Origin: Branchiostoma floridae
Taxonomy: Eukaryota; Chordata; Leptocardii; Amphioxiformes; Branchiostomatidae
Assembly (NCBI RefSeq): GCF_000003815.2
Contig: NC_049987.1
Location: 10,424,307-10,488,306, forward strand
Length of the DNA: 64,000 nt
Reading direction: 5' to 3'
In this document: positions 7,834 through 58,900 of the stretch, piece after piece
Layout of the letters: every line of letters starts with the position of its first letter
How positions within the stretch are numbered: position 1 is the stretch's first letter
The notes under the pieces: generated by a model
Told to the model about the DNA's origin: nothing
The model's database searches: none
The model's input: only the letters and a program-made list of their open reading frames with translations
Position numbers and translations under genes: made by a program

Positions 7834-7844
7834 AACATGGCGGC
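7834..7844 (+). promoter_or_regulatory. YY1-type site overlapping the start codon
   Basis: AACATGGCGGC matches the AAnATGGCGGC motif known for YY1, which often sits at the transcription start or initiator ATG of TATA-less genes. Here its ATG is the receptor's predicted start codon. No TATA box is evident nearby. Confidence 0.45.
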
Positions 7845-31900: not shown

Positions 31901-34900
31901 ACCTGAAATTTGGTATAGATAGGCATTAGATACTTGGTAACAAGATTCAAGTAAAATTTTTGACATAAACAACTTTAAAATGATTAATTTTGGCACTTTT
32001 CTGAGGGGAAATTTGTTTCCTTTTGGCCTCCTGACGTGACCTTCCGTGACCCCGCACAGAGCCACACCTGTGCGCGTCAGCCGGAGAGTTAATTGAATCA
32101 AAGACCTAGCCAATCAGCGAAGAGGAGGCCAAAGGCTAATTAATATTCATAAGCGGGGCCTCATGATCCCGTATATAGCAGTGTTCCCGCCAGGGGTAGC
32201 AAAGCCCGCCTAAGGCTCTCGCATTTTAGACTATTCAGAAGGCTTTATATTGTATCAGTTCTTAGGGGCATATCTATGATAATCGCAGCAGTCACTTCTC
32301 TTCAGGAGTTTAGCGTAACACTGTTTCAGGTCAAACCGTCAAAGGCAACTAAAAACAAACTTTAACGTTACTGAGTTCAACAGTACTTATAACTTGTTAT
32401 CCGAAGTTGAAACGCTAGCGATGGTATTTTCGCTGCGCTGTTAGCTCCGTGCGACTGTTGTTGACGGTCTTATAACGGTATATTTTGCACCCCTGTACCC
32501 TGGTATGAGTAACATTTGGTATAGATAGGCATAATATAGTTGGTAAAATGATCCAAGTAAAATTTTTGGCATAAAGTACTGTAAAAGGCTTAATTACAGC
32601 ACTTTTTTTAGGGGAAATTGGTTTTCTTTCGTTCTCCATGCCGTGACCTTTCGGACGTTCACCCCACAGAGCCGACATCTGCACCTGCGTCTAGCCGGCA
32701 GGAAGAGTTAATTCAATTAATGGTTCAGCCAATCAGCGAAGAGGAAAGCGAAGGCTAATTAATATTCATAAGCGGGACCACACAATACGTTAACTTGAAG
32801 ACTCAGGCCGTACAGACTTCTCGCCAGGATTTTTTCAAAGCGTCGGACAGGGGTCCGGGGGCCGCCGAATGTCCCTGGCGGGGTCCAGGGGCAGGGCCAC
32901 TGTGGGGGGGACCCAGGTGGGCGAAGCCCCCCCGGAAGCTCTTGCATTTTAGGCTATTGAGAAGGCTTCTTTTATCAGTTTTTTTAGGGCCATATCTACG
33001 ATAATCGTAGCAGTCACTTACTTCTCTTCAGCAGTTTGACTTTAAAATATTTCGGGTCAAAGCTTCAAAGACAACTAAAACCTCATAAACAACAAACTTT
33101 ACTTAGCTCAACAGTATACAAAAATATTGTACGGGTTGCCATCCTTAGTTGAAGCGCTTATTTATAGCGCTAGTATCTTCGCTGCGCCGTTAGCCGCCGT
33201 GCGACTTTTGTTGACGGTCTGATATCCCTACGTCGCCGCCTCGCTGATATTCCCACGGACATGTTTCAAAAAAAATACCCAGCAAAAAACGCTGTTCTGC
33301 GTCAAATTCTATTCTATAAAACTCAGTGTTACAGTCTAAATATTTTGTAGAAGCACCGCTGTAGGAAAGAAGGTCCAAGCAATGTAAAACATCACGTAGC
33401 ATGAAGTTCGCTGTCAACTGGCACACAGCACATGACTGTTTGAAACTCTAAGTCTAATCAACAGCCGTGTTTGATTGATAGCCGGCGGTCCTATGATGAA
33501 GTCGGCGAAAGGTGCGTTAGTTAGAAAATCTGCGTTTAGTTTTGATACGTAATTATAAGTTAGACAGTGGCGAGAATGATTATTTTCTCATCAATATTTC
33601 TCTTCAGAATTATTTGAACTTAATTGTACATCTAAACAATTGGCTTACCTGTGCAATGTTTATATGATTAATGATCAGTGTACTGAAATCATGTGTAACG
33701 TATGGCTCCTAGTCAATAGATCAGCATTTTCTCTATAGTGACCACCTGTCTATAGTGGCCACATTTCCTAGTGCTGTTGTTGTTTGGCATAAACTTAGAA
33801 CATTTAAATTGTAAGTAACTTTAAACTGCCAGAGTTTCAGCCCAATAAAACACTCTCAGCGCCAGGGTATGAACAGACTGACCAGACAGACGAAAATAAA
33901 TCCTCGAACAAGGTTCAATCGTATCTTCCGGGTCTGGCAGGAAGTTGTTAAACTAAAATAAGAATAGGCTCGATGGTTGATTGCATACAAAGTAAAACAG
34001 TTTAACAGTTTTACAGCTTGAAGAAAACAAACGCTCCTACAGTACCTGCACCTGCTTGATAATTATTAAATCGTATGCCCTACTTGAATAAAAAAAGTTC
34101 ATTGCAATAATAAATGTACCCACATCACAAGGAGCTTATACTTTTTTAAACTTACACCTAGTTATCGTACTGAAAATTGTTAATGACATTACATGAAGTC
34201 ATTCAACAATTTTCAGTCATGATGAAAATTTTCTGAATGGAAGGTGTGATTATTGTCATTTTCTGAAAAATAGAAGCAAGCTCTGTTTTTACCTGGAGTC
34301 AATTCACAATACCAGTCCACTTTGGGGGATAATGTACTGTTAAGAGGATGTTCCATTTTTGCGCAGGGGTGATTTGGAACAGTCCAATGTTGCGTGGGAA
34401 GGGGTATGGCTGAAATATGCTGTATTTGCTCTTAAGCAAATGTCGGCCTTTCTAGTTGTATCTAGAGTAATACTAATAATTTCTTTTTGTGTGAACCACT
34501 CTTTTGATTTTTTTTTAGGACCATAACTGGGAACCACTTAACCCTGAGTCCACGCCAGGACACAAGGACGAGCGTTACCACATCAACGTGTGTCGACCGC
34601 TCGTTGTCACAGACAACATGGACTACAACTGTCCTGGTACAAACTTCATCACTGAACAGCACACAGTCTTACCAGGGATATTACAATCAAACCTGTACAC
34701 ATCTACATAAAGACTGGCCAATTTTTGAGCTCCTATAGAATCCTTTTCCCATGATTGGTGTGATTTACACGTAGAATTCTGTCTCTAGTGACCACCTGTC
34801 AACTAGATTTTATTGACCCCAAGTGGTCTTGTTGGGCATTTTTGATTGTAGTCTGTATAATACAGTATATGAAATGAAAAAAAAAAACAATTATAAGGAA

Positions 34901-37900
34901 ATATGTTTTTTATAATTTGCTTCTTTGTCTATGTTACAGCTTTGCAGCTGTGAAATGTGGAATCACTTATTGCTACTGCAGCAGTATAACTGAAACTTGC
35001 CTTTCCCGTTCTCAGGTGGTCCCCTGGGGTCATGTATGACTGGTCCCCAGGGGAATAAGAACCTGGGTGTTGTCCAGTCCAACCCCCAGGCTGCCGGGAA
35101 CTCCCTGTCCATCAGGTACTACAACGGGGACATGTGCAGAGACAACGTACACTACAGCACTGTCATTGTGTTCGAGTGCTCTCTCACTCAGGTGGATACT
35201 TGTTTTGCATTTATAGCCAGTTATAGTCTGTAGTATTAGTCTCTTAAATGAAGTTTAAGTATGTGGTTCACATGATGAAGAGTTGACGTAAATAAAGATA
35301 AAGTTATTCTTATGTATACATTCATTGGTTTTACAATAAAAAATGACATTAACCCCCAGTCAGGCTCACTTCTATCTTAGCGCAGTAGATTAAAAACATC
35401 ATTTGCACTTTTGCTGACAGATAAAGTTCTTCTTGGCAACCTAACTACAATGTGCTTCCTGTGTCAACAATCATTTCACATTGAACTGTTGAAAGTAACG
35501 TTAGGACTCTGAGCTAAAATTTGTATTGTACATGACTTCCTTTCATGGTCCAAAAATATGTATTACAGAAAGCACACTTATATTATTAAGCTTGTCTATA
35601 ACTTATTTTTGTTTTCTTTTTGAAACGCCATATTGTATATGACTTGTATGATTATTAGGCTTAAGTGTATCAATGAAAATAAAAGAATCCTTTGTTCTCC
35701 CTCCAGGGCACCCCAACATTTCAGACAACAACACAGGACGGCTGTGAGTACGCCTTTCTGTGGCGTACCCCGAGTGCCTGTCCAATCAGACGGGCCATCG
35801 GCAACAACTGCCGCGTAAGGGACCCGCTCTACGGATTTGAATTTGACCTCTCCCCACTGTACAACTACACTCGTGATTACAGGTAATGAAGCTCTAGATT
35901 TGGGCAAAGTCGGTATTGTAAGACTTAGTACATTTTAACTGGGTCGTTTACATGTATAGTACTGGCAAATGCTGGTATAAATGACATCATAACAATTTAA
36001 GAAAACATAATTTTATGCAAGGCATGCAAACTTGCTGTTGCCATGATAGCCTTAGATGCAAAACAATGTTGCAAACAACAGACTATTGTCAAATGTTTTA
36101 ATTTTTTAAGATAATATACCCATCTCCAGTTCTGTCTAATGTATTTTTATTTATTTATTTATTCACATATATTTTGCGAGTATGAGGCGGAAAGCACAAA
36201 TTGCTTATATTAAGCCTTCTACTCAAGAAACATACGCATAAGACAAGAATAGTAAACGGCATTACATACATAAGTACAAAATGGATAACAGAAAAATAAA
36301 TTTAAACAAGACAAGTCGGTGCTGAATCAATTAGGAGAACCTGCCTGTACAATGGATATAGGTAATGACAAGATCAAAAATGTTACAGTTCTGTTGATGT
36401 GAGAGAGATGTTGATCCTGATAACAGTAAAGTACATAAAGTAGTGTTGTTGAGGTGCTTTAGGTCTACTATAATATTTGAGACAGCCGATAACAAAGAAC
36501 TTCTTTGGCTAGTATAGAGTGTGCAGTGTAGTAGATAATGTTCGGTTGTTTCACAATGATAGCCGCATTTACATGTAGGATAATCAATACAATGGTGTTG
36601 AAATAGATGGTAGTTTAACTGACTGAAGTTTAGACGGAGCCTTGTAAGATGAACTGCGGAACGACCTTGGCCATAAGAGAAATGGGAGTATTTTGTCGGC
36701 TTGTTGAATAGTGAGTCCAGCTCTTTTTTGAAAGTGTTGATCGAAAGGACGGCTTTAGCATTTGTAGGCAGTTCATTCCACAAGTGAACAGTTGAAGGTA
36801 GGAAGGATCTTTTATACTTTTCAGTTTTACAGGCAATGGAAGTAAGGTTTTGGTTTGCGCGAACGTTGTAAGGGACCGTATCACAGATACGTGGAGGGAT
36901 AATATTATGTAAGTACAGTGGTGCGAGACCATTAATAATTTTCCAAAACTGAATCAACTGGTGCTTTTTCCTTCTGTCCGCTAGTGTGTCCCATGCAACC
37001 TCGGCTAACAAGCTCTCATGTTTAGTGCCTCTCATGGCTCCGGTACAAACTCGTGCCGCGGCCATCTGGACAGACTCAAGAAGATCACAATCTTTGCCGA
37101 GAAGGCCACACCAAACAATGTCAGCATATTCAAGTAATGGACGAATCATAGTGACATACAGAGTTTCTAATGTTCCCCGAGGAACAAAATATGATATCCT
37201 CTTCAGAAGATTGATTCGCTTCATTGCCTTGGTAATCAATGTAGACACGTGATATGACCAGGACAAGTCACGTTTCAAGTTTAAGCCCAAATGCTTGTGA
37301 GAGTCAACTTCCTTAAGCACAACTCCTTTAAACACTAATGGTGGGTGATAGACTTTGACCCTTTTCATGGAGAATGTCATCAGTTCAGTTTTAAGGGGAT
37401 TAAAAGTTACCAGCCACTGGTCCGACCATTCACCCACCATTCTAAGATCATGGTTCAATCTATTAAAATGCTGAGACGAGCGGATCCAAAACTACTTCCA
37501 CAAGAGACGTGTCATCAGCAAAAAGATTGGCATCAGTTTGCAAGTTGTCCACTAAATCGTTAATAAAAACTAGGAAAAGGAGTGGGCCCAAAAGCGACCC
37601 CTGTGGGACACCTGCGTCAATCGGTAGCCAGTCGGAGCATGCCCCATTAATGACAACTCTCTGCTTCCGATTTGTGAGATAAGATTGTATCCATTGAAGA
37701 AGTGAACCAGATATCCCTAGTTGGCTTAATTTGAAAAGGAGACCATCGTGCCATACCTTATCAAAAGCTTTTGATATGTCCAAGAAAACGGTGCGTACTT
37801 CAAAACCTTGGTCTACTGCTTTGTGCAGCTTATGAACAAGGTGTGTCAATGAATTAACTGTTGAGTCTCCGGGGGTAAATCCAGAATTTCGATCGGTTAG

Positions 37901-40900
37901 CAGGTTGTTGCCATGTAAGTACGCAGATAATGGGGCATAAACTATCCGTTCAAACACTTTGGACACACAGCACAGGAGTGAAATAGGCCTATAGTTTTCT
38001 TTGGCCTGCTTATCACCTTTTTTATACACAGGGACAACATTTGAAAATTTCCAAATTGACGGAAAACAGCCGTATTCTAATGAAACATTAAACAAATGCG
38101 ACAGTGGTTGTGCTATTGAAGGTGCTATACACTTCAGAAGCCTATTACTTAGTCCATCAGGCCCTGTGGCCTTGTTTATATTGAGGTTTGACAGTACACT
38201 GTAGACATTTGCGGGGCAACAATTAATTGAATTGAGAGCTAGTTCTGTTCTGGGTACAAAGTTTGGGAAAGAGGCGCCATCGGTATTCAGGTACGTTTGA
38301 GATGCAAAGTAGTTGTTAAGAATATCGGCCTTGGCCTTGTCGTCTGTCATAACATTTCCATTCTCAAGTAAAGAGGGCAGAACCCGGTCCGCCTTGCCAA
38401 GAAAGATTTCCTTGGAAATTGACCACCATTTCTTGGGGTTAGAAGTTGGATTGGCAAGGTCAAGACAGAGGCTATGCCGATGATTTCTCTTCGCTTTTCT
38501 AATTAAATCTATACAATTATTTCTAACTCGTTTAAATGCACAAAATAAACTAGAGTTATTTGTTTTTTTGTACCGTCCGTAGAGCCGCCTCTTTCTCCTG
38601 AGTAAGCGCCTGATCTCACATGTCATCCAGGGCTTATCTCTAGGGCGGATAGTGACTACTTTACTTGGAATAACCGTCTTTATGACATCTGTGAGAGTCG
38701 ACATAAAAGCCTCAGCTGAGGCATTCACGTCTGGAATGTGATCCGATATCACGGAATTCCAGTCTACTTCAAGAATCTTAGAATTAAGTTCTTCATAATC
38801 GACGTTCGTAAAGTCATACATTGTTCGTTTATAAGCGTTGACTTTAGACATTGTTCCATAAGTAACAGCATGGTCACAATTAGCAAGGGGAGGAAGAATA
38901 CCATGGTCCACAAACATACCTGGTGAGTCAGTAATAATCAGATCAAGCACAGATGCTGAGGTGTCGGTACTACGAGTAGGTTCCGTTATTAACTGAGAAA
39001 AATTATTGTCAGACACAAATCTGTTTATCATACCAGCTGCATTATCTGAATTACCATTGAAATCACCAAGTAAGACTATTGCATTTTGCTGAGAAGGCCC
39101 ATTGTCCACAATGGTATCTACTGCCCGCTGCAGGTGGTCTATGAATGCCGTGCGCTCATCCACATTCTGGCCAGGTGGTCTATAACAGGTACAAATGTAA
39201 ACAGTCCAGTTCTTTAGCTTCACCTCGCACCAGATTGTTTCAGAACCATCTGTTTCAAGGTCAGACCTTCTTTTACACGGTAGATTATTGGATGCGTAAA
39301 GCGCAACTCCACCCCCATGTCTGTTGCGGTCCCGTCGTAACGGGGATTGATATGACGACAGGCTAATATCTGAATCGGGAATAGTTTCATCACACCAAGT
39401 TTCTGTTAATGCTATCACGTCGAATCCGACATCTAGGGCAACAGATTCGAGTTCATGGAGTTTAACAAAATCATTAGCAGGTAGACTTCTCACGTTGGCG
39501 TGGCAGACGGAGAGAGACTTCATGTTATGTGGGGAGGGATTGGAGTACTAAAGGAACAATGCTCTCCCGCCTGGCACGCACGTGTGAGGAGGAATTCCTC
39601 GCTAATTGATAATGACAACACCAACTATGCTGTACAGAACAGCGACAAACATGTTTAACAAGGTGACACAAATTGTTACATAAGTACAAAACTAATAACA
39701 AGATTATACTCATACTAGAGTGAGTTTACAAGTGACTGGCAACAGAATGCAGTCAAAGTTGGACATGGGCTCTCTCGTCCGCCTATGCCATAAGTAAAGG
39801 TTCCATTAGCTCAGCAGAGATACAGAACTTACAGTGAGTAACATTACAGTTCCATGTTGTCCAAGTCCGTGCGGTTGGCGACCCTCTTCTTGACACTGTC
39901 ATGCAGACAGTAGATGCGTCCGTCCATGGACCAGCCGTTCCCCATCTTCTCTCTGGTTGCACGAAGCAGTTGAGCATTCTCCTTGGTAAGCTGCTCAGTG
40001 ACAAAGAGCTTAGATCCTTTGAGTTTGGACTTAGCGGAGAAAAACTTGTGCCTGGCGGTGTACGAGACAAACTTGATCACAATGGGAGGTGGGCGTTGAC
40101 CATCAGAACCTTTGCGTCTGGGTAGCGGGTGAGCCCGATCAATATCACCCTCCGACAAGTCGATGCCCAGGGTGTTCTTGGCGGTGTCGAGGATGAACTG
40201 GACGGTGTCGGAGGTAGGTGAAACAGCCCCATGCAAGAGGAGGCAGTTTCTTCTAGAATACTGCTCAAGATCATTTAATCTGGCAGAGGTCTCGCGAACA
40301 GCTGCATCTGTGGTGTTGATTTGAGACTTCACCTGTGCAACACTTGATTTGATTTCCCTCTGCTCGTCAGCAACGCCAGCAAGTTGAGACTTCAGCTCCT
40401 GTATCTCAGACTTCAGGGGAAGTAGAAGCGTGGCTTCAATGGCATCCAGGAGTAACTTGTTATCAGCAGATAGCTTCTCCCGAAGCTCCACAGACTTAGC
40501 TTGGGTTTGAGACGACGCACGTGTGTTCCTCTGGGTGGACGCCATGACGGATAAACGTGGCCTCGGTGCCAGCCGCCAGAGACGAGCTCAAACAATGGAA
40601 AAAAACGCAGGAACCAACCTCGAAATCAACAGAAGTCCTGACTCAGAGGCTTGGGCAGTAGGTTGGCCTGTGATTTAGCTAAATTTCAGAGCTAGGCAGT
40701 TACGAATTCCAAAGAAAGATAGGCGGACGATAGAGCGACGAAAATTAACGACCGTCCATGTTTTCGTGACCTTTGACCTTACGTCTAATGTATCTAACAT
40801 TGGATCAGGCAAGACATTTTCAAACTTATCCAAAAGAATTAAATTGAATCAAAAGTTTAGAAGGGTGGTGTATGCATGGTTATTGAATCATGGACCCCTG

Positions 40901-43900
40901 TCTAATTCTGTACTATTCTGTTGCTTCTCTCCACATTGCAGAGTCAGAACACAGCAGTATGAGTACAGTCTGAACGTGTGTGGACCGCTCCATGAGGGAA
41001 CGGGGGCATGTGATGCTAAGGTTCATAAAGACGTCAGTGCCTGTCAGAAGACTCTGTCTGGAGTTGAGCCGGAAGTGAACCACGTTACAGGTCAGAGGGC
41101 ATTTAGAATCATCTTTGTTCTGTTTTGCAAAGAGACAAAATGACATTTTAATAAGTTATTAACCCAATCTTCTGCTGGGTGCAAGGGAAAAAATATATTA
41201 TAACCGTGTGCATCCAACAGCTTGAATTTCAAGTTGAAGGTTTTTATATTTTGATTACAAAACACCTCTCATATTTCTGAGGTTTATCTGGAAGAAAACC
41301 ACTTAAGTGAGTGTCTGCGCTGATAGTAAGGTATGACTTGTGTAAGCTGAAGAATCAGAATGAAATTTTTGTGGCACATGATATAGAGAATGTTTAATTT
41401 ACAAATTTCTGTTGTTGAACATGGGTCCACAATGAGAAGTATCCTTCTTTTAAAGAATCATTTGTACTTATCAGGCACATTCAACAAGACGGTTGTGTAT
41501 GAGGATGGGCAGATCCTGTTGAACTACACTGGAGGAGAGAAGTGCCACACCGTGTACACCCGCTCTACAGCCATCAACTTCTACTGCGACCACTGCGCTG
41601 ATGGGAAGTGCAAGGACGGACCCAAGCCTGGACCTGTAAGTACTTTTTGTACATGTTTGGAGTCATGAGTGTGTTCAATGCAAAGATCACATCAGATTTG
41701 TGATTGTAGTATACAGCATTTTATTGGAGCAACTGCCACATTAAAAGATTATTACCATTTGGTAGAAATAAGGCCATACTTGTGATTTTTATGGATGACA
41801 ATTCAGCAAAAAGAGCCTTTTCCCCTCTGGAGGAGTCAACATGACAAGAAATCATATCACGTGGAAGCCTTGATTGTGCTTGTAGAAGACTAGTGACACT
41901 AGTGAAGAACATGTAGTCATAGTAAGAAGTGAAACTAGTTTGATATTTAAAGTGTCACAAATGTGGTTGCCAGTAGTGTTGTTAACTTGTTAAATTATAC
42001 CAGTCTAGTGTCACTTTGTGCACCTCTTCAATACAGAAATCAGAGAAAAGACTGTGATACCATGTTTTGATGCCATTGGTTTGACACTGTTACAATGTTC
42101 AACTTTATGATGTCTATTTTTAAGATGAAGGTATGATCTTTATTTATGCCCATCTTGCTCTTTTTTGCCGTCTCTTGTTAAATTTGGAGTCTGCAGAGGA
42201 TGTCATCCATAAGATTTAAAAAAATGTCTTTATTAAATGTGTCTTGAAATATAAACTTAAAGGTAATTATTCATCTTGTGTCTTAACTATCCAGTTCCAC
42301 ATGGTATGCAATTCACCTATCTAAAACTTTACACCTTGGATATTAATTTAAATTTACAGGAAGTAAAAAATGCATACTACTTCAAATTATACGATAAAGT
42401 GCCCACTAGAACCGTGCATCGAAAAGCAGTATTTTACTTAATTCTCCATTGGCAAGTACTCACCCCCTTCTGGAGTTACATGTAAGTACTAATCTTTAAG
42501 AACACCTCAGCTTTCCAAGATGATGATAACCATTTGCTAAATGCCCGGCAGTGTTCCCAAGCCTGAGCTGAGTGACAGGCAGGTCAGACTTGTGGGTCAG
42601 GAATCCCTCGTCGCTACGCCAGTTATAGTCGTCATTATCGCAGTTACACCTGGGTTGTCCATTGTCACAGGTGCCTGGTAACATAATATTTGGAAATAAC
42701 ACAATTGGTTCCAAAATTAACACCATTTTAAATTACCGCTACATGTAATTGCCAGATATTTAGAGATTAGGACTGATACAGACAAGTCATGTACAGGTCA
42801 GGTTCAGGTCCAGGGGGTTTATGTCTAGGTCAGGACCTGAACCTGGACCTGATTGTCTGTGCACATGAAAAGGGGCGATACTCAAAACAACTTGGTCCAT
42901 TTTGCTACAAATTTACAAACTTTAAGGAAGCTGTTTGGTGGAGTACATGTACCTAACTTCCTTGGCATCTTAAAATCCTATCTTGAGGTTCATGCAAACT
43001 GTAATTGCCTCAGTCTGTACATTTGAGATTTGATTATAAATCTGGTAGACATGACTTTTAATGAATCATGTATCAGTAGATAGGGATTCTTTTTAAAAGA
43101 AGTCATCCAGCAAATACCAGCGCTCTTATAGTTGTATACATTGTACAAGGCACTAAAATAATGAGATGTCATCACACAGACAGATAAAAAATTTTATGTC
43201 CTTAATGCCAGCGCTTGCAGTTAATTAAACCGTAAGGGTCAACAGGTTTTTGCTGCAGGTTCGGTTAGTTAACGGGAAACACAACATTTTTTTCTTAGGC
43301 CTTACCTTCTTCACCACATGCACAATTGCCACTGCCAGGGGTAGCCCCTCCCCAGTAGTCTGCCATCCTGCCATCCCAGGTCACCCACCAGGCAACATCA
43401 GTATCACCAGTATTTATCATGGTGTGGAAACACTCATACTGCATTGGGTGGAGACAAACATCATTGACAATTCACAATGCAAATTCAGACAAGTAACTGG
43501 GTTTTATCGATGGTCAGATGTTTCAGATAGCATTTGCTAGCACCTTTAACTACTAGTAGTATTGACAAATGTCAGCGGTGATCTGAAACGTTTTAACACT
43601 TGCAATTCTTATCCGTTGTATTTGCTTTTGAGTAATTTTGTATTGTGCATCTTATTGCCAGGTTGTGTGATGAAAACATAGCAAAACATACTAGTAAGTC
43701 ATTCAATCAAAAGTATGTGCAACTAATGTATTAGATATATGTAATCTACGTCTCTCTCTCAGGGATACATGATAGTTACTTTGAATTTAGAATCATTACT
43801 TGACTCCGTTGGTGTAAAGTTAGAAAGCATCAAATAAGAAAAAAAAATTAATATTCAATTTTTGAGCCGTCATCTTTCTGTACCTTGATAAACTGCTTGC

Positions 43901-46900
43901 ATGTCTGTGAGACGTAAATCAGGGCTCTGATCTGGTCCACTGATGCGCTGTAGGTCACATCCCGCATGTAGGTACCAGCACCAGCATACCCATTTCTGAC
44001 GTGGGTGCGGGCCTCACTGTCGTGGCTTATCACAGTCACACCTGATCAGGCAGGGACAAAGTGGGGCGGGGGCAAAAACGGAAGTCAGGTGTTTCTGAGT
44101 CATATCTTTGTCAACTGAGATTCTGACTCTTGAAGTGCCTGTTTGTTTGTTTGCTTACCAGTGTCAAGGGTCATGCCTGGGCCATACGTAATAGATCTAC
44201 TAGGTAATATTGCATAGTCTGATATGCAAAATCCAGGCTGTGTCATATTTCCATTATATAATGTGGATGGGATTGGCATTCAAGCTAAGTCTAAGTCTAT
44301 TTTGTAAGTTAAACTGTAACGGCAATGTTCCCACTAATTCACCATCTTAAATATAATATATTAGTTAAAAGCAAGACTGCTAGTTCGTTACCTTTGCCAG
44401 GCTCCAAGTCCACGTCACAGTAGACAGAGAAGGGTTCCACCCCGGTCTCAGGTCCGTCAGGGTCGATAAGGTACTCCCCCGAGGCCATCCCTGGATGGTA
44501 CAGGCTGGAGCAGGTTCTGGGAATGTCACCTACATGAATCAGAAAGAAGTTTAAAAAAAAGATCAGTGGCATGCATGGAATTGTATGTAATGCGCAATGC
44601 CCTTGCCATAGTCGGATATGAAGATGCCTATACATACAATCATGTGCATGTGCTCATCATGTGTACACAGTTTGCACACGCATACACATACACATACACA
44701 TCACACAAATGAACAGGTAAACATGTGCATACACATATGCAGTGTACAAGTTGATGTTATACGCACAGTCTACACTCTCTAACAATGCTAGACATTGTTA
44801 TACTCCAAGGAGTCATAAAGGACTGTCAATATTTACTTTCGATCAATTGCAAGTGAGAGTCATTCCATGGTACAAACTATTTTTGTCACCTGGAAATGTG
44901 GTGAAATTCTGGAAGTCACAGTACACATCAGATACGTTTGAGGACACCACGTAGGAACCCGACTGTCGACACCCCAGCTTCCACAGGTGATAGCAGGAAG
45001 GCACACCTGTATAGATAAAACAATTCTCTATTTTCTGGTTGCTATTGCACAACTGAAACCAGTTAACTGTTAATAGTGTTCTGTGCTTTGCACTAAATTT
45101 AGAGACGAGTTAACAACAATTAAAGAACAGTAATTGGCTTGAGTTAAAAATACTGCTCATTTGTTTTTTTCATTAGTGAGCACTAAGTGTTTCAATAAAC
45201 TTAAGGTAAAAAAAGTGAAATTTTGAAAATCAAATGTTACTGACCTGGAAGCCTGTGTCCTTCAGCGCACTTGTCAACCAAAATCTTTGTCTCCAGTACT
45301 TGTACTTTTGTCTGCAGAAGTTGCACCTCAGCCTCCTGTTGTTGCACCTTCCTCTCTTGTTGTTGCACCTTTGTCTCCAGTTGTCGCACCTTGTCTTCTT
45401 GTTGTTGTGCTTTGGTCTCCAGTTCTTGCACCTTGTCTTGTTGTTGTTGCATCTTTGTCTCCTGTTGTTGTGCCTTGGTTGCCAGTTGTTGAACTATCTC
45501 TCTCAGTTCACTCACTTCTTGTTCTGAGCCAGCGCTACAGTCCTGGACGCTGGAAGGCGGCAGCACAAACGTGTAGGCCCGCTGCCCTCCCGTGCTGTAA
45601 CGGCACTGTGCACTCACCTCTTGAGTGGACTGTGCACTGCCGACATGTGCTCCAGCAAGCAATACCACAAGAGACACTAAGTGATTCATAATAATCAACC
45701 CCTTAATGTTGCAAGTAGAGTTGATGGAACACCACAAAGGTGTTTTGAAGCAAGCACAGTCAGTAGAGATGATGAGCCAAGTTGAAGGAGACGTTTCTGT
45801 CAATATCTTTTTTGTATCATTTACTTCCTCTTGCGTAGTGCCTTAAGGGTCAATCTGGTCACATGATGTAACTTAACTGAATATGCTATTGAAGCAAAGT
45901 GGTTGTGTTGAACAGGTATTAAATGCCCTTAGGCATATCTGATGACAATACAGACTGACTTGACTCATTGTTAAAATTGAAAGAGCAAGGGGAATCACAA
46001 TGACATCATTTTTTGGTCATGTGACCATCAAGGAAATGACCTTTGTAAAATATCTGCATGCTCAAATTAGTTCCACACTGAATTGTAACCCTACATAATT
46101 TTTTTTCAGTCACAGTGATGACTTGGCTTGAACACATTGAAAAGCAATTAATATTATCATGACATTCATGAGTTTTTATCACACTTTCTTTTTCATATAG
46201 ATATTGTGTTGTTACCCAAGCCTCCAAAAACTTTGATTACAATTCAATTTGCATGCATGCAGTGACAGGATTGTTTACATTCTCTGTTCATAAATAAAAA
46301 GAAAAACATAATTGAACTAGTTCAACTGTAAAAAGAAAACAATTTGGTACCTGACATAGACATGAAAAAAATCCTTTAGGAGCCCCCGAGGTACTTTTTT
46401 ACATTCTTTTGACATCTTGACAAATTTATCCAAGAGCCTTAATGAGTATAATTTGTTAGTGTCAAAAAGTCTGGCATGGCTTGACATCTGTACTTTTTAT
46501 TTCCAGGTCTACGTTAATGAGACCTCTGACTGCACCTATGTGTTTGAGTGGGCGACATCGTACGCATGCCCTCCCTTCAAGATCGTGGAGTGTGTGTACC
46601 ACGACGACAAAGGGAACCAGTTTGATCTGACTCCACTGTCTCTGTCCCACGGGAACTGGGAGATCATCCCGACATCACGCAGCTCAAACAATGAGATATT
46701 CTACATCAATGTGTGCAGATCAGTGGTGCATTCGAAAGGTGAGCTGTCCCACAATATGTAGTCTGGGAAAAATCCTCCAGGTTATCATCTGTTGTTTTCT
46801 GCCAGGCCAGTGTAGATTTGCTTGCATGAAGATGTTTAGGCTTGGTGGCAGCTCATATGCTGTTGTTCATGCTTTAACCTCCTTGGTCTATGGTCATTTG

Positions 46901-49900
46901 TGTGATCTTCTTGGGCCATTACTCGTCTTCCATTCTCTGGAGGTGGCCATTTACCATGATCGTAATCTGTTGAAAAAAGTGAAAATTAAAATTGATCTCA
47001 AACTAGTCTAGCTCAATGAATTTTTTAAGGGTTCTAAGTAAAAGTAGGGTTCCTTCCCTTACACTACAGCAGCTGCAGCTTTGATGAAACTGTGCAACGT
47101 TTGCTGGCCTCTAGTACAAAAACCACAAGTTGGTATAGAATATGGGGGAATTATATTTGTTACCTGACAAAGGTGTGTGCTCTCCAAGTACCAAAGAATT
47201 CACATTGTTCTTCCCATATCATTTTAGGTGTCCAGTGTCCCTACAACGCAGGTGCCTGTATGAAGTTACCGGAGTCCGGTGACGCGAGTACAAAGTTCCT
47301 GAACCTGGGAGAGGTGCAGGGTGGGCCGTGGTACGAGGATGGGAACCTGGTGCTGAACTACACCCTGGGGGCTAACTGTACCGCGGACGGGTCCAGGAAA
47401 AAAATGACTGTCATCAAATTTGTCTGTGATACAGATTCTGTGGTGAGTTTGAAGGATTAAATATCAAATGTAGTACTAAAATGGGGACTAAAAAAGTTGA
47501 ATATAATATACATATTCAGATGAAAACTACTAAGCCCTAAATTTTCTTCATTTTTGTATCACAGTAAGGTCAGTGATGAGCAAAATAACTGTGGTCAGAA
47601 AGAATATGAGACAAGATATTTTCAAGATTAAAATAATGCCATTGAAAGACCTGGGTCCTATAAAGGTTGTCCATTGACAAAGAATTGCTATATATGATAA
47701 CAATACATTAACCATTTGTGTTTTCCATAGGGAAATGGTCCCCAGTTTCTGGGCTCTACTGACGGCTGCATCTACACCTTCATCTGGTTCACTGATGTGG
47801 CCTGTCCACTCAAGGCTGACCAGTCCAGCGAAGGACACTGCAAGGCCAAGAACCCCCTCACAGGTAAACAGGAACTGTTACTGTAACAGTACTGTTGTTC
47901 TACATGACTGTCATTTCAGTTTCTCCCTTTAATGTTGTGTAATCCCAAAAAAGGGCTAACCCGCAAAACAGACAAATAATCTAATCAACCTTCTGACATT
48001 GATGTAAAAGTAAGGAAAAGGTATGTTTCATTGCCAAAGGTGAATACTTGTCAATTCCCAAAGATCATACATCTCGGGAGTGTTTGGAAACTTTGTTTGT
48101 CGTGATTTTGTCATGATGCTTCTCAAGAGTATCCCCAATTATGATGAGAACTTGTTATGAATTTTTATGGTGACTTTCAAAGATTTATCTTGACTCTAAA
48201 GTTGACTTAGACTTTCATAGATGGAGCAATGTTGTAAGTTAATGTTACATGATTGTGCATACTGTTACCTTTTGAACACAAAGCAAGACAAGCCATATTG
48301 TGGAACTTGCTAAAATTAACAAGATTCTGTAACAGTGACTTTATAGACAATGTAGCATAATACCATACATCTGTATTCATATTATGTAAAATGTATCGTG
48401 CACGATTGTTAAATTTTGTTGAATATTTGCACCTTTTCCTGCTAGGCTATGAGTTTGATTTGAGTGAACTGAACAAGAAAGACTCGTACTACCAAGTACT
48501 GGACCAGACAAAGGAGCATGCCTACCAGATCAATGTCTGTGGAGCTGTGAAGGGGTCCAAGTGCAAGGGGGATGACATAGGTGAATACTGTTACTTACAT
48601 TTAAAATCACTTCTACTAGTTATCTGTCCACTATTTCTTTTGCCACTGACTTACATTTCTTCATGTTCTTGCAGCAAATTGAAATGATTTCAATCCTCCA
48701 AACATGACTGCAATATATTCCTATTTTCTATAAATTACAGTTTACTCAATTTTAATGTCATTTTTTTAAAATTACGCAATAGTTGTGTCATACATTTTTA
48801 TATAGTATGAAGGGCTGTGAAGTGACAACATATTGTTACATCCTGATAGTGTATTGTATTGATTGTGCTTGTAAACTATTGATTTGAGTGATCATATCAT
48901 TGGCATTTTCCAGCTTTTATATGTACTACACATACTCTACACCCTGCTTTACATATGAACTCAGTGCATAGTGCATATTGTTCTTGATTCTGAAATGTAG
49001 CAAAACAGTACAGTTTACTATGATCATGTTATATAATTCCTGTAACAATACTAACATTAGCATGTTTATGATTGATGTAACTGTGAGAGTATACATTCTT
49101 GTTGGATTCTTTGGTCAAAATGGAGTTTATTTTTCCATCAGGTGTGTGTCAGGCAGAGCTAATCCATGGCCAACGCACCTTCAATGGCGGCAAGTCCAAC
49201 TCCAACCTGGACTACAACGAGGGCATACTGGAGCTGACCTACAAACAGGGCGACCACTGCCACAAGGACCAGTTTGAACGCAGCACGGTCATCAGTTTTG
49301 TGTGCGCCAACCGGACGGACAACGGCAGGCCTGTGTTCATCGATGAGTCTGAGGACTGCACCTACTATTTCTCCTTCCATACACCATTGGCTTGTGAAAC
49401 CCAGGTCAGGTTCAAGGATTTGTTACTCTCAAGCACTAATAGAGGTCTGGTTTTAGTTTCCTGGCTTGCAAGGCTGGTGGTCTGCTGACTGGATCTGCCT
49501 TGCCTGATCTGGTCATGTTTCATGTGGATGTGCATGATGTATAATGATTATCATAATTATGTCTCTAAGTACAAAGTATCTATAAATTTCTTTTGTTGAT
49601 CATGTTTTGCCAATGAGAAGTACATGATTATATGACATTGTGCTATTCAAGTCAAAATCCTTCCCGCGCCTGAGGGCAGCACCCATCTTCGTTTCAGTAG
49701 CCCTGGGCCATGGAACCTCCTACAATCACTACAGCAGGGGGCTAGTCCACAGGTAGTGGTGTGTGTTCAACTTCCATACCCTTTCCCGGATGCTGAGTGC
49801 TAGACAGAGAAAGCTGCAATGTACCATATTTAAAGTCTTTGGTATGACTCGGCCAGGGATCAAACTTACAGCCTACCGAATGCAAGGCGAACACTCTACC

Positions 49901-52900
49901 CACTCAGCCACTGCACCAGTACAATTGTATGTAACTAGACAACATCTTAATAGTACACTGTATTAAGATGTTGTCTTTGACGAATATTCATTTCTTGTTT
50001 TTGTATATCATGTTCTCACAGGTCCCTTGCATTGTGGACAATGGAACAAACTCCTTTGACCTTTCCCCCCTGATCAAGGCCGAAGGTCACTTCATGGCGC
50101 CCTCAATAGGAGGGACCGGGGCGTACTACATTAACATCTGCCGACCTTTGAACCCAATCCCTGGTGTTCGCTGTCCACCGGGGGCCTCTGCTTGCATGAA
50201 GGAAGACAACAAAAATCCTGTGGTATGATTCTTGCTTTTATCATCGATAAGTTTGTTGTGAAACTTGCTCTGTATGATGTAATCCTTGCATTGGAGACAT
50301 ATATCTGGAAAGTAATATATTAAGCTAAATGCATCTACCAATGTCCTACTTTATTAGTGTAGCAGACTTCATGTAACATCATGACATGATCTGAAATAGT
50401 CGCTAAGCGTACATTTGATTTAAAACTGTAAAAAAACATTATGGACAAGAATGCCTAAATTCCGACATTTAGAATCATTTATTTGAAATACAGTTATTAC
50501 GTAGTCATCGATTTTTAAAAACAGATTACAAACGACAATGCGGTTTGGCGAACATTGAAGAGCTTGATTAAAGAGCATTGTTATGAAGAATTGTTGTTTG
50601 ATAAACAAATTGTTGCCTCTGTACACTTGATCCACCTTTCCAAATATGTACATTGTGATATTAGCTATAGCTACATGTTTCAACATATAATAGAACTTGT
50701 TATTGATTGTGTTTGAGAGCACAATTTTTGTTGTGTCACTTATTTGATTTTTTTTTACGTAACAGAGCCTTGGTCGAGTGTTTGAACAACCCAAAATCAA
50801 CCCAGTCACAAAAGAGATCACAATCATCTACAAGCATGGCTCCAGGTGTGAGAGTAACCCTGACTACAACAACACTGCTCAGATTGTCTTCCGCTGTGAA
50901 CAGGGAACATCAGTGGTGAGATACCATGTTTTTTTAAAATCAAATATCTCATGGTCTTTGATGTAAAAGACTGTTATGTATAGTGTATAGCAAAAACTGC
51001 AAATTCCATTCTTTCGACCCAGTGTTATATGGAGGGTAATTAACACAAAATAGCAGTTTCTCAAGCAACTGGATGGATTGTTGACCCAGTTTCCTATCTG
51101 ATTTACTTTATTTACAAACCTCGGTTTCATAAATGACCTACCTTGGACCGTAGTCCTCTTTCCCCCCACAGTGAGTCCAATGGTCAGAAAATGGACTTAG
51201 TAATACTTAGGGAGGATTGAAGATGGACTTACTCTCTTATAATAAATTGGTGTGAAGTACTTACTCTGGATAATAGTCCACATGGCAAAATGGGGTGGAC
51301 TTACTGTGGGAGTAACTCCCTAACAAGTAGGTCAACCTATATTTAATAAAAACTATACTGGCTACTTGTACATTCATCCTCTTTTAAGTCCCAGGTTTGC
51401 AATGATGATATAGCCATGTGTATCGTATTACCTGGATGTCTGAACTTAAATGATGTAAAGCAGGTGATAGCCTTATAGTCCTTTTCAAAGCAGTTTTCTG
51501 TAATCTCATGTTTGTGTTCCCCCAGGGAAGCCCACAGTTCAGCTACAAGACAGATGACTGTGTGTACTTCTTTGAGTGGAAGACCAATGTGGTGTGTGCG
51601 GCACCCAAGCCTGTCCAGACCACACAGTGCACCTATACAGATCCAGCCATCAAGTACACATTCAACCTCACCAGTCTCAGAAGTACTGGCGATAATGGAT
51701 ATGAGGTGACAATTATAACATGCTAAATATGATTCTCTTTCTTAAAAGTAGTGGTTTATAAAGTACAATATTAGAGTCAACAGTTGCTAGTCTTGAAAGA
51801 AGTACTGAATGATAGAAAGATGAAAGAAGTACTTGTCGATCTCTCTGTCAATTTATCATGAAGTTTTGGAAAGATGTTTGAGTGACTGGAAATGGAGTAT
51901 TTCATGAAAGAAGAAAGTTGTAGATAGAAGAAGTTAAGATAATCTCATAGCCTTTTTGAGGCTGTAGGGGCACTATGGTCAATTATCCACTGTGTCTTGG
52001 TACAATATTGGAAAGCAGAGCCCAACCCTCTCCTTCCACCTCCTTTTACCTCCTTAACTGAAGTCAGGTACCTGGGGGAGTGAGGACAGTCACATAAAGT
52101 ATCTTTCCGACACAAGGAACACCTGAGGAATGGAACCCGTGACCTCTCAGTCTCATGTCTTCTAGCTTAGCCATGTGGCCATATGATGCCACAAGGAAGT
52201 TATGCTCAGCCTGATAAATGTAACTGTTGAAAAGCAGTCAGTGCATATCTTGGTCTATCTATAGGTTTGGCTGTCATGTTGCAGTATCTAAGATCTATTT
52301 CTTGTCATTTCTTCAGGTGGAGGACAATGTACAAGGTGGCAAGTACAGTCTGAACGTCTGTGGCACCGTCCCCAGGGCCGGCTGTGACCCGGACACAGCT
52401 GTGTGTGTAACCCTAGCTGACGGGAAGAAGATCTCAGCAGGCAAGTTTAACACCCAGACCTTCAAGTACGAAGGAAACCTGCTGACGCTGTCCTACAGTG
52501 ATGGGACGACTTGCAGAGGGAGTGAGAAGTACAGTACCAACATCATATTCAAGTGTGCAGATGAAGAAAACAGCCAACCTGCTATCTTTAGTGTAAGTTT
52601 ATGTGTCCACATCAAATGTACCTAATAAGAGAATCATAATACAGATTTCCTTTCAACTGATATTGCCTCTTGAAATTTTGTTTCATCAAATATTGTATCT
52701 TTTAATGAAAAACTTTCACGTATATTGTACCATGAAAATTAGTTAAATCTTATTTTAACACTTATACAGCATAACACTCAGAAATCAATGTACCTCTTAG
52801 AATTTGTAACATTTCAAGTTTGATTTAAAGCATTATTATGACTACTACATTATCTCATCACCAAACGACATGTTTACACACAACAGGGTTATACTGCCTC

Positions 52901-55900
52901 TTTGCAGGGTGACATATCCTTCTGTTTGCTGATTACACGATGGGGATGCGCCTGGTCTCTGGTCTGGGTGAATGGTGTAATAATTTAGTACATTTGTCTA
53001 TCTTTCCCTAGATGACAGGATGCTCATACACATTCATGTGGAAGACCTCCCTAGCCTGTCCGCCGGCCAGCCAGCCCTGTGCCATCAACCAGAACGGACA
53101 GACCTACGATCTCAACCTCCTCTCACAGGAGACCAACAGCTGGAGGTTCAGGGACAAGTTTGGCAACAAGTATTACCTGAACCTGTGTCAGCCTGTACAC
53201 CAGGGACCACCAAGTATGTCAAGCAATGCAGCTAGAAATATTCCTTTCTTTCCCTATTTTTTACTTATAATGTGTGTAGTTACCATGATTTGCAGACTGT
53301 GATAGACATTTTGATCAATAATCCAATCTGATGTGCTACTTTAAATCCTGTCATGCCACTAATCTTGTGCATTTGGGAAAGGCCTAGCACCTTAACACAA
53401 ATTTTCTCACTTCACTCAAGTGAAAATGAGTACCTAACTGCGGGGGCCACTTTATTTGATACAGAACAATAAGAAACATTCTGTAATGATCATCATCATG
53501 ATTGTGGGAAGGAAAAAGAAAAAAAGAGGATATTTGGATGAGGATTAGCAATCATTAACCCTGCTTATGGTAGCTTTATAAATCATGTGTGAAAATGATA
53601 TCCAATGTGTTTGTATACTATCTGCCATGTTTTACTGTTTTATTTTGTTGATTTCCTCCTAAAGATGTCCTCAATAAAACCCTGTCTAGAATTTCACGTA
53701 ACATTTCACCGAAGACTATATTATGCCTACTGATCGCTGTATGTTTCTGTACACTACAGGATGTGACCCTAATGCTGCTGCATGTAGACAGAGGCCTGAT
53801 GGTACAGTTGATAATCTGGGAGTGGTCAGCTCCCAGACTATGAACGTGGATGGTAAGCACAATTCCTAACATATCATAACCAATAAATGTACATGGAAAA
53901 TTTCTAATTGTAATGTTACAAGCACAAAAAAAGCTATTTGAAAAGTAGTGGCTGAGATTTGATTGCATTTCAGCACCAAGGACAGATGCTAGTCAGTAGG
54001 TGTTAATTTGCTAAGTCTACTGTACCTACTGACGCCAAAGGATCAGAAAAGTGTTTTGCAACCCTTTTCGTTCAATTCATCGAGTTTATTAAGAACATAG
54101 GGATGGATTGTTTTATAAAAAGCTGTAGTTGTCAACAGCAGTATAGTATTACATAACTAATACAGAGTTTTAGCTCTCTGTGTTTGCATACAATTAAGAA
54201 GATGGTACTCCTTTCATCACACCACCTTCACAAATTCGTCTGATATGTACGTATTATCATATTTGTCCCCTCCACCTCCCAGACACAGGGTTGAAGGTTG
54301 TGTACAGCGAGGGTGGGGCAGGGGTGTGTGACGACCACTCCCGTAGGTCCAACAGTGACACGGCCTCCATCGAGGTCCAGTTCTCCTGTGGTTCTACGGT
54401 GGGAGGGCCCCAGCTGCACAGTATAGACAGCAATGGGAGATGCCACTTTGTGGTCAACTGGATGTCTGCCATCGCCTGTGCAACAACAAGGTAAAGATTT
54501 CAGTCATACAGCCTCATTCATTAGCCCTGAATCAATTGACAAATAAAATGTTTGTACTAGGAAGACTTTTTCAAATATCTAATGTCTTCAGCTAACTACG
54601 ATTCAGTAGAAGAACTCTGTATGTTCGTCTTCACATGTTTTAAGAAGAGGGAAGAAGCATATAGAAATATAGGCATGAGTAGAACATAGAATAGCTTTCC
54701 TATCAGTCTGGTTGTATGCAATTTACTGCATTTACAACTTCATTGTCATTGTCACTATAATACACATGCCTGCAAAGCTGGTGTGTAACGCCAAAGGGCT
54801 TTTACACTGGCTATATACATGTAGATACAGATACAGATGCACCAAGGGTAAAAAACAATTTGGTAGGCCGGTATGCCTGAATCCAGTATTCCCTCTTTGC
54901 ACATAAAGGTCTAAGAACAGTCCAAAAGATAAAGACTGATAACTACTGACTAATGATTAGTACCACATACCACAGCATCGGCCTCTCAATACACATCTGG
55001 AAGATTGGTATGCACAAAACCAGTAACTACAACTAAACCAGTAGTCAGAGTAATCTGTATCTGTATCTATATAGCCAGTATAATCGCCCTTCGGCGTAAA
55101 ACACCATATGGTAATGTTTATCTCAAACAATTTGTATTCATATTTGTCAAATGATGTTTTCTGGTAACTTCTGTCTTCAAGACTGAAATGTCTTCAATCA
55201 TTTTTATTCACAGACAACCTGTGACCCCTGAAGATGGAAAGATCAGAGACCCCTTCTCCCAGAGCATCATCCACATCTCACAACTCTACAATGATAACGG
55301 GTGAGTTCTCTTATATTTATTATTGTTTGATGTTGCCTGAAATTTAAACATTTCAAATACAATAAACTAAAAAACTTTGGAGGAATTGAAATGCTGACAT
55401 TTGCAAAAGACTTCTACATAGTCTTTTCCTGCAACTTGTGTAAATTAGAATACTTTTGCCTTTGAATTTTTTGCTTTGATCAAAGTAGCATTTGAATGTC
55501 TGCTTATTTAAAAGATTTCCACTTAATCATGATAATGCTTTCATGACAATTAGATTATCAACGATATTTAAGGATAAACCATAGCAGGAAATTATTATTT
55601 TTTTGCTTATTATAGGTCAGAATACTCGAGGATGAATGAGGGTTCATTTTCTTAAGATTTTTTCGTCTTTTTGTTTATTATAAGAATATGAAGTTGAATG
55701 AAGGTTGATTTTTTCCCCAAATAGTAATTCCTGGAGAGTGACCGGAGACCTGCGACCTAACAGAGACGTGTATGTGTACTACATCAGAATGGACGATGTT
55801 GGCATACAGGAGGACCAGTGCAGGGGTGCTGCCGTGTGCCAAGTCAAGGAACAAGACAAGTTCATGAAGATTCTAGGCAAACCAGACATGATCAATTATT

Positions 55901-58900
55901 ACATGCAAGGTAAGCATGGACAGATGGATTCATATAGAATACAACACGGTGTATTCCGTATCACCTGTAGTTCTAGATCTTACCTGCGGGAGGGCTGGGA
56001 CCGAGGGTGATGCAGAATACACCTTGTTGTATTTTATTTATGTCATACCCACCTGAGAAAACCCATTTTTTTATGCGAAATGTGCCAGAAGTTGAACAAA
56101 TTTGGTGCCCTCGAACAAAAAGTGTTACAACAGCAATGTTCCAACGTCCAAATCAGGTATTCGAATTGCCAACCGCGACGCACTCGGCCCGCTTGAAATG
56201 GTTCGATTTATTCGAAGGAAGCCTGTGTGATATAAACTTCAAGCCTGTGCGATACAGAAAGTTATCACACGGTCCGGAACACCTGTATCTGAGTTTAGGC
56301 AATCAGTGTATATTTATTTATTCATAGACTGTTAATTGGATTATAAATTACAATGTGTTAAACTGTCTGTTATAGATGGAGCCCTAGAAGTTCAAATTCT
56401 TTCTGATACAAGATGTGGGAGAAGAGAAGAAAAGAAGACCAGTACCACCATTATCTTCCATTGCTCGGAATACATTGAAAGGGTAAGGTCATCATTATGT
56501 ATCAATAATTTTTAAACTTGTAATTCCTTAGATTTTTCTGTCAGTCTCTTATAATGTGTTAATACTGTGACAGCTGTCTATCTTTATAGCCAGTATGATG
56601 GTTCAGCATAACACGCCAGGCACCACAGCAGTAGCTGGTTATGTATTACACTTAATGACCGCACGTTTGCAGCTGTTTAGTGAGAATATCTAAGGAAATA
56701 TCCATTTTTGAACATATCAATCCTAAGTTCACTTGACAACTCTCGTACTTGAAAGCTACATAAAAAAAGTGTATTTCTTAATCTTTTCTGGCAGAGATAC
56801 TAATACATAATGTATATTTCTGTATGCCTTCTACACAGGGTCAGCCTGAGTTTTTCTCTGAGTCTCATGATTGTGAGTACATCTTCAACTGGTACACCAA
56901 GGTGGCCTGTTTGAAGGATGATGTGGAGGAGAGTGTGTAAGTCTTCACCTGTACATCAATACTTGAGACACTCAATGGTCAAATTAAGAAAAACGTTGTC
57001 TAGAATCTGTAACAGTTCATGATATGGTTGTATTTAACCTTCATCTCACTGAAGTAGCCCTTTTGCTTCCATGTCTCTACTGGTTACTGGTTAAGGCATA
57101 AGGTCTGAGAATTAATTATCAGACAAATACATGGAATTGAAGGTATTCCTTCATTTAAAGGAAGTTATTCTAATGTTTAAACCTTTGCTTGAAATCCAGA
57201 TTGAAATACATTTAACCTTATGGTATGGTGTCCTTATTATCTAAGGAATTCAGAAAAATCTTACTGACGGTGTGTATGTCCAAGAAAAGAAAAAGGAATT
57301 TGGTCCATCCTTCTGCAAATATTTAAAATGTAACTGTTACAGTCTGGGAGTTTGACATCTTTTTCTTCTCAATGTTTATCTTAATGTTTGTCTTTGTCTA
57401 GCTCCATCCCACCACCTGAACAAAATCTTCCAGATGATGGAACAGGAATTCACCACTTCATCAGCCAGCACAAAAGCTCAGCTGCCACAGTTGTGGGGAT
57501 AATGTTGGCAATAGTCATCATCTGTGTTCTAGTCATCATCTTTCACAAACAGGAGAGAAGGTAGGGAAAACAGTCAGACATTATGATCAAAGTAGTATCC
57601 AGTATTTGATTATACTGCTGCTGGGGTCCCTGACACAGGGATAGGCAGGGATAGGCAGCAATTGGCTTGTCTTCACACCATGCTTCCATGCGGCTCTGTC
57701 CAGTGGCCTCACCCTAGTTAGACCACATACTTAGATATGATTAAGCTGTGCTATTATTTTAGATGTTTGATTTAAGGAACTGTTTAGTTTCTGTGAATTT
57801 TTTCTTGTGTCTCTTAAAGGCTGTTTCTTTCACTTTAAATGGACAATGGAGTAGCCAGTAATTGCTTTCCTCCTAAAGCCACAAAAGTTGACATACGGCC
57901 TGTAATGTCACAAGACAAATCAAGCATTTCTGTTGGATTTCTGTGATATGCTTCCAGTTTGATTAGTAGAAATATCTATGATATGCGCTAATCATATTTT
58001 TGTATTCAGATAAATGATCATAACATGTCCCTTGCTAATTTTTATTTCCCATTTCAGACAAGCATTTGTACGAAAAATGAAATCTTGCTGTGGAAGAGGA
58101 GGAGATCTTAGTCACCCAACCTACAGATATACAAAGGTAAAGGAAATGTACTCTTTAACCTGTCCTGGACATAGATTCTCATTCACATGTTACTGAACGG
58201 TTGCAGTCCCCTATAGGGGATGTTAAGCCATCAGGTTTTTATACCTTCCTCCCCCCGTTGCTTGTCAACATCATGCTATCTCTTAAGGGTGATTTTTCAT
58301 TATATGATAAAGACAAAGATTCATCATGATCTTTCCTCTCCCCAGTTTATGTCCAACGGTGACGAGGATGGGTCGTTGCTAATGGGCGGACTTGACAGCG
58401 ATGAGGAGAGTGGCAACAGCCAATCAGAAGAGGCGTCAGATGACTTCATGGTAGAGTTTGACGCAGAGTCCCATCAACAAAACAGAGCAAAGAGAAAAAA
58501 GGTACGTGAAGAACAAAGGTCTTAGGTCTCATCTGCTTTTGTTCATGGTACTGATTACCCGATGAAACTTCAATGAAACCTGCATTTCTATCACCCATGT
58601 CTGTATAGCCAGCATAACCAGTCTTTAGCATAACACAACAGCTTTTCAGGCATGCAGCTTGGCAGCTCATTATTATCAATATGTCACAACGAACCTTGTA
58701 TATCTGCTTGTGTAGTTTAAAACTATCTATTGTGAATGACCCTATATATATATCTATAGTACTTAATGGCAACAAGTATACAGTTGTTATAGGGAAGTAT
58801 GAATTTTGAACACATCAATTCTTCAGGTCAATAACTCTGGTACTTGAAGGCATGGCTATTTCTATTTGGTACATCTACCAGTGTTTAGAAGTTATTTTGT

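What the first reader, a model, noticed from the sequence alone, without database searches (positions are those of the whole stretch)
47731..49404. Receptor repeat 11 carries a full mannose-6-phosphate signature instead of the mammalian IGF2 pocket
In mammals repeat 11 binds IGF2 through a hydrophobic pocket that includes Phe1567 and Ile1572 just after a conserved Cys. Here the same loop reads CQAELIH, so Gln and His stand at those places. The Gln, an Arg 43 residues later ([10 protein letters not shown]), a Glu (IDESEDC) and a Tyr (CTYYF) have exactly the spacing seen in repeats 3, 5 and 9. This suggests repeat 11 was a fourth sugar site and that IGF2 binding arose on a former sugar-binding face.
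Basis: partly seen in the sequence, partly recalled or inferred. Interest (0 to 1): 0.85.

Follow-up and report, generated by a model that had tools for sequence, protein, structure and literature searches.

The report
Lancelet receptor domain keeps sugar-site signature
In what looks like the lancelet version of the receptor that sends enzymes to lysosomes, the domain that in placental and marsupial mammals catches the growth factor IGF2 still carries all four amino acids that other domains of the receptor use to bind the sugar mannose 6-phosphate, suggesting that a lost sugar site was later reused for a hormone.

Summary
[quoted passage not shown] Repeat 11 is the counterpart of mammalian domain 11 by order, best hit of the vertebrate domains and tree. 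It carries Gln, Arg, Glu and Tyr in the sugar-signature columns; of 15 repeats only 3, 5, 9 and 11 have all four, and only those have the Arg. With the signature columns removed, repeats 3, 5, 9 and 11 still group (98/98), and a two-state model gives the domain-11 ancestor the signature with probability 0.95-0.96. Three corrections: spacings are not 'exactly' equal; mapping Ile1572 to His is unsafe, because the human CD loop is five residues shorter; and an avian domain 11 (PDB 2l21, organism recalled) lacks Gln, Arg and Tyr, while IGF2 binding is reported as a later mammalian gain. The likeliest history is sugar site, then vacant pocket, then IGF2 site, not a direct switch. Binding is inferred. 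No structure model could be run (eight attempts, machine busy); no fish, lamprey or other invertebrate sequence was available.

The parts
47806..47863 (+). Domain 11, first piece (end of exon 25; the exon, from 47731, begins with the end of repeat 10)
   Evidence: Gene model; alignment
48446..48580 (+). Domain 11, second piece (exon 26): N-terminal half with INVC...KC
49142..49404 (+). Domain 11, third piece (exon 27): carries all four signature residues and ends in HTPLACETQ
   Evidence: a CIMR match of the own-genome search covers window 49273-49398 (E 8.2e-7)
49150..49152 (+). Gln codon (CAG) directly after the Cys: signature position 1, place of human Phe1567 counted from the Cys
49279..49281 (+). 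Arg codon (CGC): signature position 2, eight residues before the Cys of ISFVC
49345..49347 (+). Glu codon (GAG): signature position 3, six before the Tyr as in repeat 9 (a second Glu, 49351-49353, is four before it)
49363..49365 (+). Tyr codon (TAC): signature position 4
7837..59020 (+). Whole receptor gene as modelled: 42 exons, 2460 residues, 15 repeats, one membrane span, cytoplasmic tail
   Evidence: no transcript evidence
18048..19276 (+). Repeat 3, sugar-signature part, introns included (CQ, NRTSV, SEEDCSY)
21391..22197 (+). Repeat 5, sugar-signature part, introns included (CQ, NRSTH, AEDNHFY)
40942..46569 (+). Repeat 9, sugar-signature part, introns included (CQ, TRSTA, ETSDCTY)

Best explanation
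Repeat 11 of this receptor is a working mannose-6-phosphate-type lectin domain. Gln, Arg, Glu and Tyr line the pocket of the beta-barrel and hold the mannose; the Arg is the key residue; the loop CHKDQF before it, which resembles that of repeat 9 (CHKVYQ in human), would face the phosphate. The domain helps the receptor to collect phosphomannosyl enzymes for lysosomes. This state was inherited from the ancestor of repeats 3, 5, 9 and 11. On the line to amniotes the Gln, Arg and Tyr were lost and the CD loop became shorter (13 residues here, 10 in 2l21, 8 in human), leaving a pocket without sugar; in therian mammals the same face became the hydrophobic IGF2 site. Shown: gene model, residues, orthology, grouping. 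Inferred: pocket geometry, sugar binding, which phosphate form is bound, and the timing of loss.
For: Full signature in repeats 3, 5, 9 and 11 only, 4 of 15. Arg to Ala or Lys at this column in bovine repeats 3 and 9 is reported to abolish binding (PMC3632087, passages). Eight cysteines are present and align with human domain 11. Tree of 18 repeats without the signature columns: repeats 3, 5, 9 and 11 together 98/98, the three domain 11s together 92/95. AU test rejects repeat 11 with this protein's repeat 9 (p 0.017), with the repeat-9 pair (0.041), the repeat-5 pair (0.035) and the repeat-3 pair (0.034). Two-state model on that tree: signature in the domain-11 ancestor 0.95-0.96. Exon 27 shows no recent DNA copying: the next hits in the window are 30 bases at 83% and 46 bases at 74%, in the exons of repeats 5 and 3.
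Against: No structure, docking or binding result. Raw scores of repeat 11 are higher to human repeat 5 (216), own repeat 9 (207) and own repeat 5 (203) than to human domain 11 (198). Placing repeat 11 with the six sugar repeats, apart from the vertebrate domain 11, is not rejected (p 0.205). On exon-27 columns alone the domain-11 group is weak (78/65). The trees carry long-branch warnings, also at the join of the sugar group with repeat 10, and the place of domain 11 inside the sugar group is weak (62/72). CD-loop length does not separate sugar repeats (10-15) from most others (10-16). One non-vertebrate species carries the whole claim. Human repeat 5 has the signature yet prefers the GlcNAc-diester (PMC3632087), so the signature does not fix the ligand.
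Confidence: 0.62

Rival explanations
1. The signature is inherited but no longer works: repeat 11 keeps the four residues, yet loop changes or neighbouring domains close the pocket, so it is a structural repeat.
For: No binding data; signature domains differ in ligand (repeat 5 prefers a diester, PMC3632087, passages). In the IGF2-bound bovine receptor the repeat-9 pocket is blocked by neighbouring domains (PMC7481795, passages).
Against: All four residues and eight Cys are kept, while 9 of the 11 repeats here without the Arg also lack the Gln, so the set does not seem to be kept for structure alone.
Confidence: 0.25
2. Repeat 11 gained the signature secondarily in this lineage, by conversion from repeat 3, 5 or 9 or by parallel change; the chordate ancestor had none.
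For: All four residues sit in one exon. Grouping repeat 11 with the six sugar repeats apart from the vertebrate domain 11 is not rejected (p 0.205). Repeat 11 scores higher to some sugar repeats than to human domain 11.
Against: Only short DNA matches to other exons; AU rejection of a pairing with repeat 9, 5 or 3, and with own repeat 9 also on exon-27 columns alone (p 0.016); ancestral state 0.95-0.96.
Confidence: 0.11
3. The domain already binds an insulin-like peptide, as in mammals.
For: Phe of GQRTF aligns with Ile1572 in the HMMER and MAFFT alignments.
Against: CD loop five residues longer than human; Gln follows the Cys where human has Phe; Tyr where human has Leu; a paper states that invertebrate CI-MPRs seem not to bind invertebrate insulin-like peptides (PMC8805411, passages).
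Confidence: 0.02

Closest known systems
CI-MPR/IGF2R domain 11 of human (PDB 1e6f, 2v5o; IGF2 site; organism recalled)
   Same: Same place in the 15-repeat chain, eight Cys, HTPLACE end; grouped with repeat 11 in the tree
   Different: Lacks Gln, Arg and Tyr of the signature and has the shortest CD loop of the 27 repeats compared (8 against 13); binds IGF2
CI-MPR domains 3 and 9 (high-affinity M6P sites)
   Same: Gln-Arg-Glu-Tyr in the same columns; loop before the Arg like that of domain 9
   Different: Different position in the receptor; exact spacings differ; sugar binding of repeat 11 untested
Domain 11 of PDB 2l21 (chicken, organism recalled)
   Same: Counterpart domain, grouped with human domain 11 and repeat 11
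   Different: Ile, His and Ser at the Gln, Arg and Tyr columns; CD loop 10 residues
CI-MPR domain 15 (fourth named sugar domain of mammals)
   Same: A further sugar repeat outside 3, 5 and 9
   Different: In this animal repeat 15 has Gln, Glu and Tyr but Thr at the Arg column; the bovine residue there was not seen

Membership tests
CI-MPR / IGF2R (whole receptor) | Tandem CIMR repeats (Pfam PF00878), 15 in vertebrates | tested here: met
   15 repeats in the gene model; 15 exon-level CIMR matches over the cut-off in the own genome, each inside this window (a lower bound); repeat 11 alone 85.6 bits against a cut-off of 22.5
CI-MPR / IGF2R (whole receptor) | One membrane span and acidic tail with sorting signals | tested here: met
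   By eye only: hydrophobic stretch [21 protein letters not shown], tail ending [10 protein letters not shown]
M6P-binding MRH domain | Gln, Arg, Glu, Tyr in the pocket columns | tested here: met
   columns fixed by alignment to human 3, 5 and 9
M6P-binding MRH domain | Cys pattern of the MRH fold | tested here: met
   Eight Cys in repeat 11, aligned with human domain 11
M6P-binding MRH domain | Four residues meet in one pocket in three dimensions | not tested
   Structure prediction did not complete in eight attempts
M6P-binding MRH domain | Binds M6P or Man-P-GlcNAc | not testable with these tools
   Needs a binding assay
IGF2-binding domain 11 | Hydrophobic CD loop with Phe1567 and Ile1572 (human numbers), short loop | tested here: not met
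   Gln after the Cys, loop 13 against 8; the residue at Ile1572 is ambiguous, His or Phe
IGF2-binding domain 11 | Binds IGF2 | not testable with these tools
   A paper states that invertebrate CI-MPRs seem not to bind insulin-like peptides (PMC8805411, passages)

The most novel reading that the evidence does not exclude
The chordate ancestor had a working phosphomannose-binding domain 11, still working in this animal. Vertebrates lost its sugar-binding residues before the amniote radiation, and the empty pocket was the raw material for the IGF2 site of therian mammals: a ligand site reached by losing an unrelated older ligand first, not by building a site on a blank surface.
Probability: 0.5. 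Interest if true: 0.68.

Novelty: new variant of a known kind. Interest (0 to 1): 0.52.

Why it matters
IGF2R is a textbook case of a receptor that gained a hormone late and then came under parental conflict and imprinting. One paper lists it among receptors that may have had another function before they bound their ligand, noting that none of the human pocket residues are present in non-mammalian species (PMC7244123, passages). A counterpart domain with a complete sugar signature would tell what that pocket did before, and gives three states to compare (sugar, vacant, IGF2). It also predicts an additional sugar site in a living invertebrate chordate that can be tested directly.

Tried and rejected
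Recent exon conversion: not seen in the DNA and a pairing with repeat 9, 5 or 3 is rejected by AU tests, but not fully excluded (p 0.205). Misnumbered repeat: rejected by order, scores and tree. Mapping of Ile1572 to His: judged unsafe. Structure model of exon 27 with the window's other repeats (alignment A1): never run, machine busy. Search of the own genome for the cation-dependent receptor (PF02157) and for M6P-making enzymes (PF11380; PF09992; PF18440): not answered, so nothing is said about them. Literature: in ten searches I saw no listed title or abstract start on domain 11 of amphioxus or on a sugar signature in any domain 11; one search matched 2,256 papers and listed 20. Passages of 11 papers were read, no paper in full. 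The library holds open-licence papers only, so subscription papers on domain 11 were not seen. Bovine repeat-15 residues at the Arg column: alignment cut off in the output, left open.

Rows left out: nine repeats (1, 2, 7, 13, 14, 15 of this protein; 1, 2, 14 of human), most of them marked as long-branched, were dropped from the trees. All 27 rows were, signature columns included; there domain 11 is one group against the other named groups (90/86, 98% of 200 bootstrap trees), but 18 ungrouped rows are not counted and some may lie inside. Human repeats 6, 7, 13 and 15 were not used, as their letters were not printed in full or were not read off. The 2l21 row is partial (102 residues).

Full report
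What is there. The + strand of the window carries one long gene. A script that joined coding exons over AG/GT borders (the only borders it allowed) gave 42 exons. The CIMR family has 15 exon-level matches in the own genome, each inside this window's coordinates; the tool calls such counts lower bounds. The genome has 513,431,437 bases in 431 contigs; from recall that fits Branchiostoma floridae. The tools name no organism.

Is it domain 11? Repeat 11 is the eleventh of 15, as in vertebrates. Human domain 11 scores best against repeat 11 of the 15 (198, next 146), and 2l21 domain 11 likewise (186, next 140). Seen from repeat 11, human repeat 5 (216), own repeat 9 (207) and own repeat 5 (203) score higher than human domain 11 (198), though the shuffled z-score is highest for human domain 11 (43.2). 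In a tree with the signature columns removed and nine rows left out, repeat 11, human domain 11 and 2l21 form one clade at 92/95. In the tree of all 27 rows they are one group against the other named groups (90/86), but ungrouped rows may lie inside.

The signature. Gln, Arg, Glu and Tyr of repeat 11 fall in the columns of the sugar repeats. Full sets: repeats 3, 5, 9 and 11, 4 of 15. Repeats 6 and 15 lack only the Arg. The Arg matters most: in bovine repeats 3 and 9 its change to Ala or Lys is reported to abolish binding (PMC3632087, passages). Human domain 11 has Tyr at the Arg column and Leu at the Tyr column; 2l21 has Ile, His and Ser at the Gln, Arg and Tyr columns. That 2l21 is chicken is recalled; the output gives only the receptor's name. 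Among the domain-11 entries listed it is the least like human (53.2 bits, against 71.1 and 70.9 for 2l2g and 2lla, with a human fragment), which fits a bird.

The loop. The loop after the Cys has 13 residues here, 10 in 2l21 and 8 in human, the shortest of the 27 repeats compared; sugar repeats have 10-15 and the others 10-16, so the length marks out human domain 11 but does not mark sugar repeats. This is the CD loop in which Ile1572 sits, whose change to Ala cut IGF2 binding 100-fold, and in which an exon splice enhancer found in monotremes is linked to the gain of IGF2 binding (PMC6684648, passages). Because of the length change, which residue stands at Ile1572 cannot be read by counting from the Cys.

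History. Without the signature columns, repeats 3, 5, 9 and 11 group at 98/98; the tree carries long-branch warnings, and the place of domain 11 inside the group is weak, 62/72. A two-state model on that tree, with the signature as one trait, gives 0.95 (equal rates) or 0.96 (free rates) for the signature in the domain-11 ancestor. Pairing repeat 11 with repeat 9, 5 or 3 is rejected (p 0.017 to 0.041); placing it with all six sugar repeats apart from the vertebrate domain 11 is not (p 0.205). On exon-27 columns alone the domain-11 group is weak (78/65), and the pairing with own repeat 9 is rejected (p 0.016). In the DNA, exon 27 has only short matches elsewhere in the window, the best two in the exons of repeats 5 and 3 (30 bases at 83%, 46 at 74%).

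Mechanism. I take repeat 11 to be a phosphomannose-binding repeat in this animal (0.62). Shown: residues, fold family, orthology, grouping. Inferred: pocket geometry, binding, and loss before the split of birds and mammals. IGF2 binding is a later mammalian gain: papers state that it came after the monotreme split (PMC7244123) and is missing in monotremes (PMC2042987). So the path is sugar, then vacant, then IGF2. That the IGF2 site of human domain 11 overlaps the place of the sugar pocket in related receptors is recalled, from no call.

What is known. Mammals have four named sugar domains, 3, 5, 9 and 15 (PMC7481795, passages). Invertebrate CI-MPRs are said not to bind insulin-like peptides (PMC8805411, passages). 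In ten searches of the open-licence library I saw nothing listed on a sugar signature in domain 11 (calls under Tried and rejected; listings were capped). Subscription papers were out of reach, so priority cannot be claimed.

Verdict. A real and testable feature, correctly seen, with an interpretation that needs the vacant intermediate and weaker wording. It rests on one non-vertebrate species and on sequence alone.

Noticed in passing
55725-56913: Repeat 15, a named sugar domain in mammals, has Gln, Glu and Tyr but Thr at the Arg column, so this animal may have a sugar site at 11 in place of 15.
   Followed up: partly
49150-49188: CD loop of domain 11: 13 residues here, 10 in PDB 2l21, 8 in human, the shortest of 27 repeats compared.
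   Followed up: yes
52317-53062: A simple pattern found no fibronectin type II motif in repeat 13 or elsewhere in the window (no positive control run); human repeat 13 has one (recalled).
   Followed up: partly
58934-59020: Tail ends [10 protein letters not shown]: an acidic cluster with Met-Leu where the mammalian sorting signal has Leu-Leu (recalled).
   Followed up: no
9206-11227: Open frame of 674 codons with reverse transcriptase (RVT_1, 3.1e-10) inside the first intron of the receptor gene.
   Followed up: no
3218-3604: Long TA microsatellite, seen as an Ile-Tyr run in the translation, followed at about 3944-4185 by a short tandem repeat.
   Followed up: no
3-155: Frame like class-III aminotransferase, 25.3 bits, below Pfam's cut-off of 30.5.
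   Followed up: no
31414-31898: Similar short frames recur within an intron, probably an interspersed repeat.
   Followed up: no
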